DNA from: Nitrospirota bacterium
GTDB taxonomy: Bacteria; Nitrospirota; Thermodesulfovibrionia; Thermodesulfovibrionales; UBA1546
DNA length: 40,866 bases
Reading direction: 5' to 3'
Assembly: GCA_016208915.1 (NCBI GenBank)
Contig: JACQXE010000088.1
Location: 1-40,866 of the forward strand
Made by a program: the position numbers and the translations under genes. Under the pieces are notes generated by a model. The model saw nothing but the letters and a program-made list of their open reading frames with translations, ran no database searches and was not told the DNA's origin. Below, one piece after another: positions 4,914 to 32,726 of this stretch (the stretch's first letter is position 1; each line of letters opens with the position of its first letter).

Positions 4914-5936
4914 TTATTTGCTTAAAATCTCCTTTGCCTTTTTAATGTCTTTTTTAATCTGCATCTCCAATGCCTTTGCGCTGGAGAATTTTTTTTCATC
5001 GCGTATCCGCTTTAAAAAAAATACCTTCAGGGTTTTACCGAGAAGATTTTCAGTGAAATTCAATATATGAACCTCAAAACTTAATTCAGAAGCGCCGAAT
5101 GTCGGGTTTTTCCCGATATTTGCAACACCGTTGACTCTTGGCCCTTTACCCTTAGCAACAGAGACCTTTACTGCATAAACACCTTCCTTAGGGCAATAAC
5201 CCTTGAATGAAATATTTGCAGTTGGTGTGTGAAGAATTTTTTCTCCCCTTCCCGCGCCCTTAATAACCTTACCCTCAATGGAGAATGGCTTTTCAAGGAT
5301 TTTTGCAGCTTTGTCCACCTTTCCTTCAAGAATAAGTTTTTTGGCCTTTGTTTCTTTCAAAAGTTCTTTATAAACCGCCTGTACCTGCTTTTTTGTCTTA
5401 TCAGGAGTCCTGCTGTTGTCAATGCTGTAATCAGCCTTTTTAATCTTTTCTATTATCGAAAGCTGGCATCTCAGCCTCTGCCCTGCCACATCTGACGTTA
5501 TTCCATGCATTGCAAGCCTCTTTATTGCAGTCTTTTCATCTGAGAATACCGTAATTATCCATTCAAATCTATCCTCGTATTTTCGTTCGAATATCAAAGG
5601 CGCCTCAACGATGAAAACCTTATTCTTATTTTTTGCCTTTTCGGAAAGCTCACTAATCTTTTTAAAAACACGGGGGTGGATAACATCTTCTAATTTCAGT
5701 CTTAGCAGCTTATTCTTAAAAATCTTCTCTGCTACTTTTTCCTTATCGAGCCTGCCTGTCTCATCAAATACAGAAGAGCCGAAAAGTGACTTTATCTCAG
5801 ATATGACCTTATTTTCTCTCAGCAGCCCCCTTACGATCTTGTCTGCATCAACGGTAAACGCCCCAAGCTCTCTGAACATAGAAAGCACAGCGCTTTTACC
5901 CATTCCATAATTTCCTGTAAGTCCTACGATAAGCAT
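4914..5936 (-). CDS. coaE: Dephospho-CoA kinase fused to a riboflavin kinase domain
   Basis: The protein is 340 residues, against about 200 for normal CoaE. Residues 1-195 are dephospho-CoA kinase (last step of CoA synthesis, ATP-dependent 3'-phosphorylation): P-loop GLTGNYGMGKS at 5-15, VDAD at 29-32, and R..CQ....K...ADY.IDN near 155-174. Residues 218-338 match the C-terminal riboflavin kinase domain of RibF (riboflavin to FMN): TPTANI at 237-242, VANIGKNPTFG, EVHILNF with the expected catalytic Glu288, and RIRDEKKFSS. Even the RibF-type linker GKVDKAAKILEKPFSIEGKV is kept, while the FMN adenylyltransferase half is absent. TATAAT ends 5 nt before the ATG, with no Shine-Dalgarno. Both domains look intact. 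Confidence 0.93.
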   Translation of the reverse strand: MLIVGLTGNYGMGKSAVLSMFRELGAFTVDADKIVRGLLRENKVISEIKSLFGSSVFDETGRLDKEKVAEKIFKNKLLRLKLEDVIHPRVFKKISELSEKAKNKNKVFIVEAPLIFERKYEDRFEWIITVFSDEKTAIKRLAMHGITSDVAGQRLRCQLSIIEKIKKADYSIDNSRTPDKTKKQVQAVYKELLKETKAKKLILEGKVDKAAKILEKPFSIEGKVIKGAGRGEKILHTPTANISFKGYCPKEGVYAVKVSVAKGKGPRVNGVANIGKNPTFGASELSFEVHILNFTENLLGKTLKVFFLKRIRDEKKFSSAKALEMQIKKDIKKAKEILSK

Positions 5937-7400: not shown

Positions 7401-7718
7401 TTATCTTCTTTCGCCGCTCCCTCTATCTCTGAAACCGCCCTTATCCCTTGAAGGGGTGCGTTCTTTTTTGTCCTGCGGCCTCGCTTCATTGACAACAATA
7501 TTCCTGTCGATAAAACTGGTGTCGTTGAACATCTCGATTGCTTTTTGCGCCTCTGCGTCAGAATTCATCTCAACAAAACCAAAGCCACGAGATCTGCCTG
7601 TTGCAGCATCCTTGATTAATTTTGTGGATGCCACTTCGCCTGCCTTTGAGAAAAGCTCCTTCAGGTCATCTTCTGACGCCTGGAAAGGAATGTTTCCAAC
7701 ATAAAGTCTTCTGCCCAT
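7401..7718 (-). CDS. RNA-binding protein with single RRM domain
   Basis: From the ATG at 7718 the protein is 105 residues. That start is chosen because AGGAGGAAGA precedes it exactly; a longer frame upstream has no ribosome site. RNP2 (LYVGNI) is at residues 5-10 and RNP1 (RGFGFVEM) at 44-51, followed by a basic, Gly/Arg-rich tail (DKGGFRDRGSGERR). Small RRM proteins of this kind in bacteria bind single-stranded RNA and are often cold-induced. The gene converges on the DUF89 gene, with a 5-nt gap. Confidence 0.93.
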   Translation of the reverse strand: MGRRLYVGNIPFQASEDDLKELFSKAGEVASTKLIKDAATGRSRGFGFVEMNSDAEAQKAIEMFNDTSFIDRNIVVNEARPQDKKERTPSRDKGGFRDRGSGERR

Positions 7719-7847
7719 TCTTCCTCCTAAAAACAAAATCCCAGAGCCAATGCCCTGGGGCGATATCAGCATATTATCTCAAGTGTAACCCATATACTCC
7801 GTATAAATATGCCAGTAAAAAAAATCTTTGTCAAGGGGAACTAAAAG

Positions 7848-7877
7848 TTGACTTGCCTGCTGTCATAGGGTTAATAT
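7848..7877 (+). promoter_or_regulatory. Candidate dnaE promoter giving a leaderless transcript
   Basis: TTGACT at 7848-7853 and TAATAT at 7872-7877 are 18 nt apart. The -10 ends 5 nt before the dnaE ATG at 7883, so transcription would start at the start codon. No good ribosome site lies in between. Confidence 0.5.
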
Positions 7878-7882
7878 TTTCT

Positions 7883-10800
7883 ATGCATCCACATTCAGAT
7901 TATGTCCCCCTCCATGTGCATACAGAATACAGTCTTTTAGACGGGGCATTAAAGATAGATGAACTGACTCAGCTTGCATCTTTATACAGGATGCCTGCAG
8001 TTGCAATGACTGACCACGGGAACCTCTTTGGCGCAATCGAGTTTTACAAAAAGGTTGCAAAGGCAGGCCTAAAACCTATTATTGGATGTGAAGTTTATGT
8101 TGCGCCGAAAAGCCGCTTTGATAAAGACAAAACAGAAATGCCTGAGGCGTCATTCCATCTTATCCTGCTTGCAAAGGACAACAATGGCTATAAGAACCTT
8201 GTTAAGCTTGTCACAAAGGCATACACAGAAGGCTTTTACTACAAGCCTCGCATAGACAGGGCTTTACTCGGAGAGCACAGTGGCGGGCTTATTGGACTTA
8301 CAGCGTGTCTTAAGGGAGAGGTTCCATATTACCTTCAGAGAGGCATGGCAGAGAAGGCGAGAGAGACCGCACTCGAATACAGAAACATCCTCGGTCCTGA
8401 AAATTTTTATATAGAGATACAGAACAACAACCTTGCAGAACAGGAAAAGGTGAATATAAAGCTTGTCGAGCTTGCAAAGGAATTAGATCTCGGAATCACG
8501 GCTACAAATGACTGCCATTATCTCAAGAAAGAAGACGCAAGGGCGCATGATATACTGCTGTGTATTCAGACAGGCAAGACCATCAAAGATGACACGCGGC
8601 TTAAGTTCACATCTGACGGTTTCTATTTTAAGTCTCCAGAGGAGATGAAGGCATTTTTCAAAGAACTGCCTGAGGCTGTTCTTAATACAAGGGCGATTGC
8701 AGAAAAATGCAATGTTGATTTCAAGCTCGGAGGAACACTGCTGCCGGAGTATCAGACCGAAACAGGGATTTCGCCGGAATCCCTCCTCGAAACCAAGGCA
8801 AAAGAAGGATTATTCGCAAAGTTTGGGTCACATCCTCCTGATATATATATCGAGCGGTTCAGGAAAGAGATAGAGACGATAAAGAAAATGGGGTACTCTT
8901 CATATTTCCTTATTGTCTGGGATTTTATTTCGTTTGCACGAAAAAATGGAATACCTGTTGGCCCAGGCAGGGGGTCTGCGGCAGGAAGCCTTGTCTCCTA
9001 TTGTCTGGACATAACAGAACTGGACCCACTTAAATATAACCTGTTATTTGAAAGGTTTCTAAACCCGGAAAGGGTCAGCATGCCTGACATAGATGTCGAT
9101 TTCTGCAAAGACAGGCGTGAAGAAGTAATCTCATATGTCTCAGAAAAATACGGCAAGGAACATGTAGCGCAGATAATAACCTTTGGAACAATGGCTGCAA
9201 AGGCGGCAATAAGGGATGTCGGAAGGGCGATGGATATTCCCTATGCTGAGGTTGACAGGATAGCAAAGCTTGTCCCTGATACCCTGAAGATCAAAATCGA
9301 GGATGCAATAAAAACAGAGCCTCAGCTGAAAGATCTCTATGAGAATAATCCAAAGGTAAAGGAACTTCTTGACATAGCAAAGAGGCTCGAGGGATTATGC
9401 AGGCATGCCTCAACACATGCTGCAGGGGTTGTTATATCACCGGCTCCACTGACAAATTATATGCCTCTCTACAGAACCCCCGGAGATAATACCATAACAA
9501 CACAGCTTGATATGGAAGCGGTTGAAAGCATTGGGCTTCTGAAGTTTGATTTCCTCGGACTGAAGACGCTCACCATCATAGATAAGACACAAAAATATCT
9601 CAAGGATAGCGGCACAGAGATAGCATTTGAGAACATACCATTAAATGACGCTGATACATACGCACTGCTGAGTTCAGGCCATACAACAGGTATATTTCAG
9701 CTCGAAAGTTCAGGGATGCGGGAGATCCTCCTTAAGATGCAGCCTAACAGGTTTGAAGACCTGATAGCACTCGTTGCCCTTTACAGGCCCGGCCCCATAG
9801 GCAGCGGAATGATAGATGAGTTTATAAAGAGGAAGAAAGGGCTAATTCCTGTTAAAAATGACCTGCCGCAACTTAAAGAAATCCTCGACGAAACATACGG
9901 TGTTATTCTCTATCAGGAACAGGTTATGCAGATTGCAAACAGGCTTGCAAACTTCACTCTTGGACAGGCAGACATACTCAGAAAGGCAATGGGCAAGAAA
10001 ACACCTGAAGAGATGGAGAAGATGAAAGAGGCATTCATAAAAGGGGCTGTTTCAAATAAAATCTCTGAGAAGAAGGCAAAAAAAATATTCGACCTGATGG
10101 CTTTATTCGCAGAGTATGGATTCAATAAATCCCACTCTGCTGCATACGCATATCTTGCCTATGAGACTGCCTATTTAAAGACGCACTATCCTGTCGAATT
10201 CATGGCGGCCAATCTAAGCGCTGGTATGGATAATACAGACAAGGTAATGCAGTTGATATCAGAATGCCGTAACATGTCTATAAAGGTGCTCCCGCCTGAT
10301 ATAAACGAAAGCGGGAGAGAGTTTAAGGTTATAGGGAATTCCATAAGGTTTGGCCTTGAGGCTGTAAAAGGCGTCGGCGCCGCAGCCATCGAATCAATAA
10401 TCTATTCCAAAGGAAAAAATGGTTCTTTTCTCTCAATAGAAGACTTTTTCAAAAAAGCAGATACAAAAAAAGTAAATAAAAAGGTGTTGGAGAATCTTAT
10501 TAAGGCAGGAGCATTTGATTCTTTAGGAATAACGAGGGCCAAGGCAATGTCAATGGCGAGCGATTTCCTTAATGGAGCAACCAGCTTAAGCCTCTTAGGA
10601 CAGCAGAACATTTTTTCTTCTGAAGATGAATATGGAAAAACCAAAGAATGGGATGAGATGGAACTCTTAACTTATGAGAAAGAGGCTCTTGGTTTTTATA
10701 TAACAGGGCATCCGCTTATGAAATACAGGGAACAGCTGTCATCTCTGAATATTAAGCCAATAGGCGAGATAAGCGACTTTTCGGACAGAGAAGAAGTGCG

Positions 10801-11293
10801 GGTTGCAGGCGTTATAAACAGCATAAAAAGGATTCAGAAACGGGGCACTGCAGAGACAATGGCTTATTTCATACTTGACGATGAGGAGGGCAGCCTCGAA
10901 GCCATTGCCTTCCCTGAACTTTACAGGAACAATGCAAAGCTGTTAAGAAAGGATGCCATCATCATTGTAAGAGGTGTCATAGACCATACAGAAAAGGGAA
11001 TAAAACTTATCTCTAATGAGATAACAGAAATAGACAGTCTTATATCTAAAAATGGATTCAAATGCGAAATTAGTATAAAATATTCTGTTTCAGAGGACTT
11101 AAATCTCAGGGAACTCCGGCAGATACTGACTGACAACTCAGGGAAGTATCCTTTATATATTAAGGTTGATTTAAAGGATTTACAGGTATTTTTGGCTACA
11201 GAGCTTAAGATAGAACCAAGCGCACTTTTTACAAACAAAGTGGAAGGGCTGCTCGGGAAAGGAGCAATGCGAATAGTAAACGGTAATCAGTGA
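7883..11293 (+). CDS. dnaE: DNA polymerase III subunit alpha
   Basis: The product is 1136 residues from the ATG at 7883 (MHPHSDYVPLHVHTEYSLLDG), the normal length for a DnaE1 replicase. It has the N-terminal PHP domain (HVHTEYS, MTDHGNLFGA), the polymerase core with GPGRGSAAGS and the catalytic PDIDVDF near residue 401, and the Glu-rich thumb/fingers region with GIFQLESSGM and LYRPGPI. A helix-hairpin-helix segment (GLEAVKGVGAAAIESI) and a C-terminal OB domain (VRVAGVINSIKRI) follow. A much longer open frame upstream runs antisense through the RRM gene and is not a plausible N-terminus. A candidate leaderless promoter precedes the ATG. accA follows 65 nt later, an order seen in many bacteria. 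Confidence 0.97.
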   Translation: MHPHSDYVPLHVHTEYSLLDGALKIDELTQLASLYRMPAVAMTDHGNLFGAIEFYKKVAKAGLKPIIGCEVYVAPKSRFDKDKTEMPEASFHLILLAKDNNGYKNLVKLVTKAYTEGFYYKPRIDRALLGEHSGGLIGLTACLKGEVPYYLQRGMAEKARETALEYRNILGPENFYIEIQNNNLAEQEKVNIKLVELAKELDLGITATNDCHYLKKEDARAHDILLCIQTGKTIKDDTRLKFTSDGFYFKSPEEMKAFFKELPEAVLNTRAIAEKCNVDFKLGGTLLPEYQTETGISPESLLETKAKEGLFAKFGSHPPDIYIERFRKEIETIKKMGYSSYFLIVWDFISFARKNGIPVGPGRGSAAGSLVSYCLDITELDPLKYNLLFERFLNPERVSMPDIDVDFCKDRREEVISYVSEKYGKEHVAQIITFGTMAAKAAIRDVGRAMDIPYAEVDRIAKLVPDTLKIKIEDAIKTEPQLKDLYENNPKVKELLDIAKRLEGLCRHASTHAAGVVISPAPLTNYMPLYRTPGDNTITTQLDMEAVESIGLLKFDFLGLKTLTIIDKTQKYLKDSGTEIAFENIPLNDADTYALLSSGHTTGIFQLESSGMREILLKMQPNRFEDLIALVALYRPGPIGSGMIDEFIKRKKGLIPVKNDLPQLKEILDETYGVILYQEQVMQIANRLANFTLGQADILRKAMGKKTPEEMEKMKEAFIKGAVSNKISEKKAKKIFDLMALFAEYGFNKSHSAAYAYLAYETAYLKTHYPVEFMAANLSAGMDNTDKVMQLISECRNMSIKVLPPDINESGREFKVIGNSIRFGLEAVKGVGAAAIESIIYSKGKNGSFLSIEDFFKKADTKKVNKKVLENLIKAGAFDSLGITRAKAMSMASDFLNGATSLSLLGQQNIFSSEDEYGKTKEWDEMELLTYEKEALGFYITGHPLMKYREQLSSLNIKPIGEISDFSDREEVRVAGVINSIKRIQKRGTAETMAYFILDDEEGSLEAIAFPELYRNNAKLLRKDAIIIVRGVIDHTEKGIKLISNEITEIDSLISKNGFKCEISIKYSVSEDLNLRELRQILTDNSGKYPLYIKVDLKDLQVFLATELKIEPSALFTNKVEGLLGKGAMRIVNGNQ

Positions 11294-31127: not shown

Positions 31128-32726
31128 ATGAAAAATAAAAAGGGGAAAGTATATCTTGTTGGCGCAGGCCCGGGTGATATAGGACTTTTAACTATAAAAG
31201 GCCTGCGTTGTCTCCAACAGGCTGATGTCGTAATCTATGACTTTCATCTCAATGCGCAGGTGTTAAATTATATTAATCATGACGCTGAATTCATCTACGC
31301 AGGAAAGCGCGGAGGACATCATACGATGACTCAGGAGGAGATAAACAGTGTTATTGTTGAAAAGGCAAAGGAAGGGAATTTGGTCTGCCGATTGAAAGGC
31401 GGAGACCCATTTGTTTTCGGAAGAGGCGGAGAAGAGGCAGAAGCCCTTGCAAAAGAAGGCATTGAATTCGAAGTCGTTCCGGGTGTAAGCTCTGCTGTTG
31501 CTGCGCCTGCTTATGCAGGGATACCTATAACGCATAGGCTTTATTCCTCCTCATTCGCAGTAATCCCAGGCTATGAGGACACGACAAAAGAGGAATCCTC
31601 AATAGACTGGTCAAAGCTCGCAACCGGAGTCGGCACGCTCATATTCCTTATGGCTGTGAAAAACATGGAGATGCTTACAAAAAAACTCATAGAAAACGGA
31701 AGAAGCCCTGAAACTCCTGTTGCAGTTATAAGGTGGGGAACGAGACCTGAGCAAAAGACATTAATTGGAACTCTCGGAAATATAGTAAGCATAGTAAATG
31801 AAAATGACATAAAACCCCCTGCTGTGATGGTGGTAGGAGATGTGGTCAGATTAAGAGAGAGACTCATGTGGTATGAGAAAAAGCCGATGTTCGGACATAG
31901 AATCCTCGTAACAAGAGAGCATTCAGGAGGTTTTGAACCGCTCGAGGAATTGGGCGCTGAGATTTTAGAATTCCCGACAATAGAAATTGTCCCCCCTGCA
32001 AACTACGATGACCTTGACAAGACAATAAATGAAATCGAATCATATAACTGGCTTATATTCACGAGCGCGAATGGGTTTAAGTACTTAATGCAGAGATTCA
32101 TCGAGAGGGATAGAGACATCAGGGATTTAAAAGGCATAAAGATCTGTGCGATAGGGACAAAGACAGCACAGGAGATAAAAAAATATGGAATCAAGATTGA
32201 TCTGATACCAGAAGAATTTAATGCAGAAGGACTTATTAGTGCTGTAGTGCAGAAGAGCAGAAGTCAGAAGTCACCCCCCCATCCCCCCCTTACTAAGGGG
32301 GGGAACGAAGGGGGGGTAGACTCCGAACTGTTAAGTGGTATGCGGTTCTTATTGCCGAGGGCTGAGAAGGCAAGAGAGATTTTTCCTGAAAAAGTGCGGG
32401 AACTCGGAGGCGAAATCGATGTGCCGGTAACGTATCGGGCTGTGAAGCCTGAAGTATACGGCAAGAGATTAAAAAGATTTTTAAAAGAAGGCCGCATATC
32501 AGTCGCAACATTCACGAGCGCAGCAACATTTAATAACTTCAAAGAGATTGTCGGCGAAGATGCCGATGATCTTCTTAAAGATGTAGCAATCGCTGTCATA
32601 GGCCCTGTAACTGCAAAGGCAATTGAGAAGGCAGGACTCAAGGTTCACATCATGCCCAAAGAGGCAACAATTGAGGCAATGGTAGAAGATATAATCAAAT
32701 GGGCAACTTCACGGCAACTGGACTGA
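31128..32726 (+). CDS. Uroporphyrinogen-III C-methyltransferase / uroporphyrinogen-III synthase fusion
   Basis: The product is 532 residues. Residues 1-245 are SUMT (CobA), which methylates uroporphyrinogen III to precorrin-2: VYLVGAGPGDIGLLTIKG at the start, then GKRGGHH, RLKGGDPFVFGRGGEEAEAL (split), VVPGVSSA and GIPITHR. Residues 258-528 are HemD, which cyclises hydroxymethylbilane: RILVTREHSGGF, NWLIFTSANG, FLLPRAEKAREIFPE and FTSAATFNNF. Between HemD halves, residues about 380-400 (QKSPPHPPLTKGGNEGGV) are encoded by a G/C-rich palindrome inserted in frame. This fusion serves siroheme, heme d1 or cobalamin synthesis. Related hemW lies 2.3 kb downstream. Confidence 0.95.
   Translation: MKNKKGKVYLVGAGPGDIGLLTIKGLRCLQQADVVIYDFHLNAQVLNYINHDAEFIYAGKRGGHHTMTQEEINSVIVEKAKEGNLVCRLKGGDPFVFGRGGEEAEALAKEGIEFEVVPGVSSAVAAPAYAGIPITHRLYSSSFAVIPGYEDTTKEESSIDWSKLATGVGTLIFLMAVKNMEMLTKKLIENGRSPETPVAVIRWGTRPEQKTLIGTLGNIVSIVNENDIKPPAVMVVGDVVRLRERLMWYEKKPMFGHRILVTREHSGGFEPLEELGAEILEFPTIEIVPPANYDDLDKTINEIESYNWLIFTSANGFKYLMQRFIERDRDIRDLKGIKICAIGTKTAQEIKKYGIKIDLIPEEFNAEGLISAVVQKSRSQKSPPHPPLTKGGNEGGVDSELLSGMRFLLPRAEKAREIFPEKVRELGGEIDVPVTYRAVKPEVYGKRLKRFLKEGRISVATFTSAATFNNFKEIVGEDADDLLKDVAIAVIGPVTAKAIEKAGLKVHIMPKEATIEAMVEDIIKWATSRQLD
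32273..32317. repeat. Palindromic element inserted in frame in cobA-hemD
   Basis: CCCCCCCTT-ACT-AAGGGGGGG (32283-32303) is a 9-bp stem with 3-nt loop, flanked by outer C and G runs (32274-32280 and 32311-32317). It adds about 15 codons to the HemD domain without breaking the frame. The sequence type is that of the hairpins at 28373, 28435 and 30071. Confidence 0.83.

What the first reader, a model, noticed from the sequence alone, without database searches (positions are those of the whole stretch)
4914..5936. Dephospho-CoA kinase fused to riboflavin kinase
A single frame holds CoaE (residues 1-195) and the C-terminal half of RibF (residues 218-338), including the RibF linker. The FMN adenylyltransferase half of RibF is absent. 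Both active-site sets look intact. CoA and FMN synthesis are normally separate; joining the two kinases that finish CoA and FMN could match supply of acyl carrier and flavin, or supply FMN without FAD synthetase. I know of no standard description of this fusion.
Basis: partly seen in the sequence, partly recalled or inferred. Interest (0 to 1): 0.75.

Follow-up and report, generated by a model that had tools for sequence, protein, structure and literature searches.

The report
CoA kinase fused to flavin kinase
In one family of uncultured Nitrospirota bacteria, the enzyme that finishes coenzyme A and the enzyme that makes the vitamin B2 cofactor FMN have become a single protein; this most likely happened when the DNA between two neighbouring genes, which encoded the FAD-making step, was deleted, with an archaeal-type enzyme probably taking over FAD synthesis.

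Summary
ORF 4914-5936 (-), 340 aa, is CoaE (PF01121, residues 2-176) joined to riboflavin kinase (PF01687, 214-338). It is not a frameshift or assembly join: the fusion is intact in 11 of 16 genomes (6 genera) of one family in Nitrospirota, order Thermodesulfovibrionales, and was not seen outside it (177 genomes of the order, 396 sampled from the phylum). In G000 it is the only CoaE and only flavokinase; FAD_syn (PF06574) is not detected.

Origin: in 36 of 36 loci of six related families with both genes on the fetched stretch, coaE lies directly upstream of a full-length ribF, usually overlapping it. The fusion equals that pair minus the FMN-adenylyltransferase (FMNAT) half, resuming just after the FMNAT SSSxxR motif. 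A deletion of roughly 0.5 kb explains it.

FAD: these genomes encode the FAD enzyme MnmG. G000 lacks both known non-archaeal FAD synthase types but, like 15 of 16 family genomes, carries a ~135-aa protein closest to archaeal FAD synthase (RibL). That it replaces FMNAT is inferred; related families keep it beside an intact RibF.

Coupling of CoA and FMN supply has no evidence. New variant of known parts.

The parts
4914..5936 (-). CoaE-RFK fusion gene, 340 aa
   Evidence: single ORF; two Pfam domains; orthologues across one family
5367..5936 (-). dephospho-CoA kinase (CoaE) half, residues 1-190
   Evidence: PF01121 res 2-176; PDB 2if2 dephospho-CoA kinase over res 3-195, E=1.3e-37
5343..5366 (-). 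fusion junction, residues 191-198; stands where CoaE would end and the FMNAT SSSxxR motif would be
   Evidence: comparison with RibF of neighbouring families; predicted long helix 178-203 runs across it
5298..5348 (-). retained RibF inter-domain linker (KLILEGKVDKAAKILEK)
   Evidence: matches SLILRGRVCEASRMLGR of full-length RibF
4923..5297 (-). riboflavin kinase (RFK) half, residues 214-338
   Evidence: PF01687; only flavokinase found in the genome
3515..4765 (-). U32-family (TrhP-like) gene downstream; also next to the fusion in 8 of 10 named family loci, not found beside coaE-ribF in other families

Best explanation
The gene encodes a bifunctional protein with two independent kinases: the N-terminal half phosphorylates dephospho-CoA to CoA and the C-terminal half phosphorylates riboflavin to FMN. 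It arose in the ancestor of this family by a deletion of roughly 0.5 kb in an ancestral coaE-ribF gene pair, which removed the coaE stop codon, the ribF start and the FMN-adenylyltransferase half of RibF, and joined the last helix of CoaE to the RibF inter-domain helix in frame. The loss was tolerable because an archaeal-type FAD synthase (RibL-like, about 135 aa, elsewhere in the genome) makes FAD from FMN. Shown by sequence: fusion, conservation, uniqueness of both kinases in G000, non-detection of RibF-type and PAPS-reductase-type FAD synthase in G000, adjacency of coaE and ribF in related families, junction position, presence of the RibL-like gene. Inferred: both catalytic activities, FAD synthase activity of the RibL-like protein, order of events.
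For: Both domains far above cut-offs. Only flavokinase and only CoaE found in G000, so both halves are expected to work. Fusion in 11 complete and 3 partial copies in 16 genomes; the two genomes without a copy also show no separate CoaE or flavokinase hit, which suggests assembly gaps. Fusion rows are one clade, support 100/99. PF06574 not detected in G000 and without a hit over the cut-off in all 16. PF01507 absent from G000 and 12 others. MnmG present at full strength in 15 of 16. 36 of 36 loci from six other families that held both genes have coaE then ribF on one strand, usually overlapping, mostly 442-500 bp from the CoaE stop to the FMNAT SSS motif. Junction lies just after that motif. 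RibL-like gene in 15 of 16 genomes, the exception 66% complete; its best plasmid hits are haloarchaeal 'FAD synthase' at 3e-19 and 4e-16, ahead of TagD and RfaE2; tree groups it with archaeal FAD synthases (86/61); best fold match is archaeal 3glv.
Against: The RibL-like protein co-occurs with an intact full-length RibF in another family (f12) and several genomes of f4, so it may have another role. Its grouping with archaeal FAD synthases is not strongly supported (86/61) and rests on three archaeal rows, one of them an unassayed PDB fragment. NCBIfam returned no RibL-specific model and all its equivalog hits are below cut-off. The RFK half is modelled with low confidence (pLDDT mostly 35-55, 11-row alignment), although its profile match is strong. 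coaE and ribF are apart in some other families of the order (f2, f6, f13), so adjacency is not universal. An unknown FAD synthase or FAD import cannot be excluded. No activity was measured.
Confidence: 0.78

Rival explanations
1. The fusion is selected because joining the two kinases couples CoA and FMN supply (shared regulation, stability or ATP use).
For: Fusion kept over a whole family at 59-71% identity to the window protein; a long predicted helix joins the halves; CoaE of M. tuberculosis needs its extra C-terminal domain to fold (PMC2765170), so a folding role for the second half is conceivable.
Against: The two reactions share no intermediate; the junction is the less conserved part (55% mean pairwise identity against 69% and 73% in the halves); adjacency plus deletion is enough; no regulatory RNA of Rfam was found in the window, only tRNAs.
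Confidence: 0.1
2. FAD is obtained by another route (import, or an unrecognised FAD synthase) and the RibL-like protein does something else, for example act as a sugar-phosphate or polyol-phosphate nucleotidyltransferase.
For: RibL-like gene also present beside intact RibF in f12 and f4; weak matches to RfaE2 and TagD models.
Against: Present in 15 of 16 genomes of the family that lost FMNAT; sequence and fold closest to archaeal FAD synthase / 3glv; shares the LG-x-DQ motif with them and not with RfaE2 or TagD; G000 has its own CoaD, NadD and RfaE2-type enzyme.
Confidence: 0.2
3. Assembly or sequencing artefact joining two genes.
For: The relatives are metagenome-assembled genomes.
Against: Same junction in 11 separately assembled full-length copies from six genera; no separate copies of either gene in G000.
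Confidence: 0.01

Closest known systems
RibF, bifunctional riboflavin kinase/FMN adenylyltransferase (prokaryotic type-I FAD synthetase)
   Same: RFK half and inter-domain linker are homologous and retained
   Different: FMNAT half (PF06574) absent; CoaE stands at the N-terminus instead
CoaE, dephospho-CoA kinase (PF01121, TIGR00152)
   Same: complete kinase domain with intact P-loop, over the curated cut-offs
   Different: normally stands alone; here fused to RFK
CoaE-UPF0157 of mycobacteria and mammalian CoA synthase CoaD-CoaE (PMC2765170)
   Same: CoaE carrying a second domain
   Different: the partner domain differs; in CoA synthase the partner is the preceding step of the same pathway
RibR of Bacillus subtilis and eukaryotic RFK (monofunctional riboflavin kinases; from own knowledge)
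   Same: RFK without an FMNAT domain
   Different: not fused to CoaE
RibL, archaeal FAD synthase (MJ1179 type; PMC8305020, PMC11423594)
   Same: the unlinked ~135-aa protein of this family resembles it in sequence, length and fold
   Different: found in bacteria beside a bacterial-type RFK; activity untested

Membership tests
CoaE (dephospho-CoA kinase) | PF01121 / TIGR00152 match over curated cut-off with P-loop | tested here: met
   129 bits vs 27, 131.4 vs 65.55; GLTGNYGMGKS
CoaE (dephospho-CoA kinase) | phosphorylates dephospho-CoA | not testable with these tools
   needs an enzyme assay
Flavokinase (RFK) | PF01687 match over cut-off, PTAN motif and conserved Glu | tested here: met
   133.8 bits vs 19.6; T239, N241, E288 invariant
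Flavokinase (RFK) | phosphorylates riboflavin | not testable with these tools
   needs an enzyme assay
RibF (bifunctional FAD synthetase) | N-terminal FMN adenylyltransferase domain PF06574 | tested here: not met
   no PF06574 in the protein nor in the genome; RibF equivalog models below cut-off, only their C-terminal half matched
RibL (archaeal FAD synthase), for the unlinked L081:1916-2323(-) protein | closer to archaeal FAD synthase than to other nucleotidyltransferases | tested here: inconclusive
   best hits and fold point to it but the tree branch has 86/61 support
RibL (archaeal FAD synthase), for the unlinked L081:1916-2323(-) protein | HxGH nucleotidyltransferase motif | tested here: met
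   GTFDHFHPGH; H16, G18, H19 invariant in 12 members
RibL (archaeal FAD synthase), for the unlinked L081:1916-2323(-) protein | two conserved cysteines linked to air sensitivity | not tested
   the positions were not compared with M. jannaschii RibL; a described archaeal-type enzyme lacks them and is active (PMC11423594)
RibL (archaeal FAD synthase), for the unlinked L081:1916-2323(-) protein | FMN + ATP to FAD activity | not testable with these tools
   needs an enzyme assay

The most novel reading that the evidence does not exclude
A bacterial family in which cofactor synthesis was rewired: archaeal-type RibL is the only FAD synthase, and a CoaE-RFK chimera is the only source of both CoA and FMN, with the fusion itself coordinating the two kinases.
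Probability: 0.12. Interest if true: 0.7.

Novelty: new variant of a known kind. Interest (0 to 1): 0.48.

Why it matters
It appears to be an undescribed domain architecture made from two near-universal kinases, and its likely path can be traced: neighbouring coaE-ribF genes, a probably redundant FAD synthase, then loss of one enzymatic half with fusion of the rest. Annotation by RibF or CoaE alone would miss one function, and the case points to a testable archaeal-type FAD synthase in bacteria.

Tried and rejected
Assembly or frameshift artefact: rejected by conservation of the junction. Second CoaE, flavokinase or RibF-type FAD synthase elsewhere in the genome: none found in G000; two weak sub-cut-off CoaE hits occur in other family members. 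Eukaryote-type FAD synthase (PF01507): absent from G000; two family genomes have hits over the cut-off and one a weak hit, unexplained. Fusion elsewhere: none seen in the order, in the phylum sample (their match lists were cut) or among the 79 best loci of the genome-contig scan; that scan used only two peptide patterns (TGNYGMGK, KEGVYAV[KR]), so distant fusions could be missed. Plasmids: no record with one place covering 80% of the fusion. Riboswitch in the window: only tRNAs in Rfam. Structure of the fusion: RFK half too uncertain to search by fold, so not searched. Literature: no paper held CoaE, RibF and fusion together; the one paper with dephospho-CoA kinase, riboflavin kinase and fusion concerns Rickettsia metabolism and was not opened.

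Full report
Observation. The window holds one open frame of 340 codons at 4914-5936 on the minus strand. Pfam gives CoaE at residues 2-176 (129 bits) and Flavokinase at 214-338 (133.8 bits), and nothing else. NCBIfam agrees: the dephospho-CoA kinase equivalog TIGR00152 is over its cut-off, while RibF models match only with their C-terminal half and stay below cut-off. By sequence, the solved structures closest to the two halves are a dephospho-CoA kinase (2if2) and RFK parts of RibF-type proteins.

Is it real? The same two-domain protein occurs in the family of the window genome: 11 full-length copies, 3 partial ones and 2 genomes with none, in 16 genomes of six genera; the two without a copy also show no separate CoaE or flavokinase. 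In G000 (98.8% complete) it is the only flavokinase and the only CoaE found. The fusion rows form one clade with support 100/99. Records with names place these genomes among uncultured Nitrospirota such as CG1_02_44_142 and GWF2_44_13; many relatives outside the family are labelled Thermodesulfovibrionales. No fusion was seen in the rest of the order (177 genomes) or in the listed matches of a 396-genome phylum sample (both match lists were cut).

How it arose. In 36 of 36 fetched loci that held both genes, from six other families (f4, f8-f12), coaE is followed on the same strand by a full-length ribF, usually overlapping by a few to some tens of bases. In f2, f6 and f13 the two lie apart. The distance from the CoaE stop to the FMNAT SSSxxR motif is mostly 442-500 bp, with five longer cases up to 678 bp. 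The fusion matches RibF again from just after this motif: RibF ...VSSSRIRSLILRGRVCEASRMLGRPY..., fusion ...LLKEAKTKNLILEGKVDRAAKILGKPF.... So the chimera equals the gene pair minus the CoaE tail, the junction and the FMNAT domain. A structure prediction runs one helix (178-203) across the junction; the RFK half is of low confidence there, probably because the alignment has only 11 rows.

What supplies FAD? PF06574 has no match in G000 and none over cut-off in the family. PF01507, to which eukaryotic FAD synthase is related, is absent from G000 and 12 others; two family genomes have hits over the cut-off and one a weak hit. Yet MnmG, an FAD-dependent enzyme (own knowledge), is present at full strength in 15 of 16. 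Fifteen of 16 genomes, the exception being 66% complete, carry a ~135-aa nucleotidyltransferase. It is distinct from the genome's CoaD, NadD and RfaE2-type proteins. Its best plasmid hits are haloarchaeal proteins annotated FAD synthase; the haloarchaeal RibL assignment rests on similarity to M. jannaschii MJ1179 (PMC8305020). By sequence and fold the best solved match is 3glv from Thermoplasma volcanium, 38% identical. In a tree it groups with archaeal FAD synthases rather than TagD or RfaE2, but with 86/61 support only. I therefore call it RibL-like and its activity inferred.

Caveat on order of events. The RibL-like gene is also found in most f12 genomes examined, in part of f4 and in one f10 genome, where RibF still has its FMNAT motif. 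This fits a redundant intermediate stage, but equally allows another function for the protein.

Function. Both halves keep the residues expected for catalysis and are the only copies in the genome, so the simplest reading is a bifunctional enzyme with two independent kinases.

Known context. CoaE fused to other domains is known: CoaE-UPF0157 in mycobacteria and CoaD-CoaE in mammals (PMC2765170). RFK without FMNAT is known from RibR and eukaryotes (own knowledge). An archaeal-type FAD synthase outside archaea is described from Entamoeba (PMC11423594). I found no report of CoaE-RFK, within an open-licence library only.

Noticed in passing
L040, L041, L035, L037, L044 (RFK half, between EGVYAV and ANIG): Several orthologues carry in-frame inserts in one RFK loop; the DNA looks like short tandem repeats (TTCACCCATTCACC, GGTATCAGGTATCAGG).
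   Followed up: partly
L219:4037-4317: The U32 gene beside the fusion in this genome (contig JACQXD010000153.1) seems to have lost most of its middle: matches to residues 1-36 and 339-403 lie next to each other.
   Followed up: no
window 31128-32726 (+): Another cofactor-pathway fusion: tetrapyrrole methylase plus HemD; such fusions are known from other bacteria (own knowledge).
   Followed up: no
G014:C22:22320-22916 and G122:C304:529-1050: Two family members have PAPS-reductase-type hits over the cut-off that G000 lacks; role unknown.
   Followed up: no
window 7622-11293 (+): The mechanical TTG start of the DNA polymerase III alpha ORF is probably too early: profile matches begin near residue 92, and the stretch overlaps an ORF on the other strand (7401-7772).
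   Followed up: no
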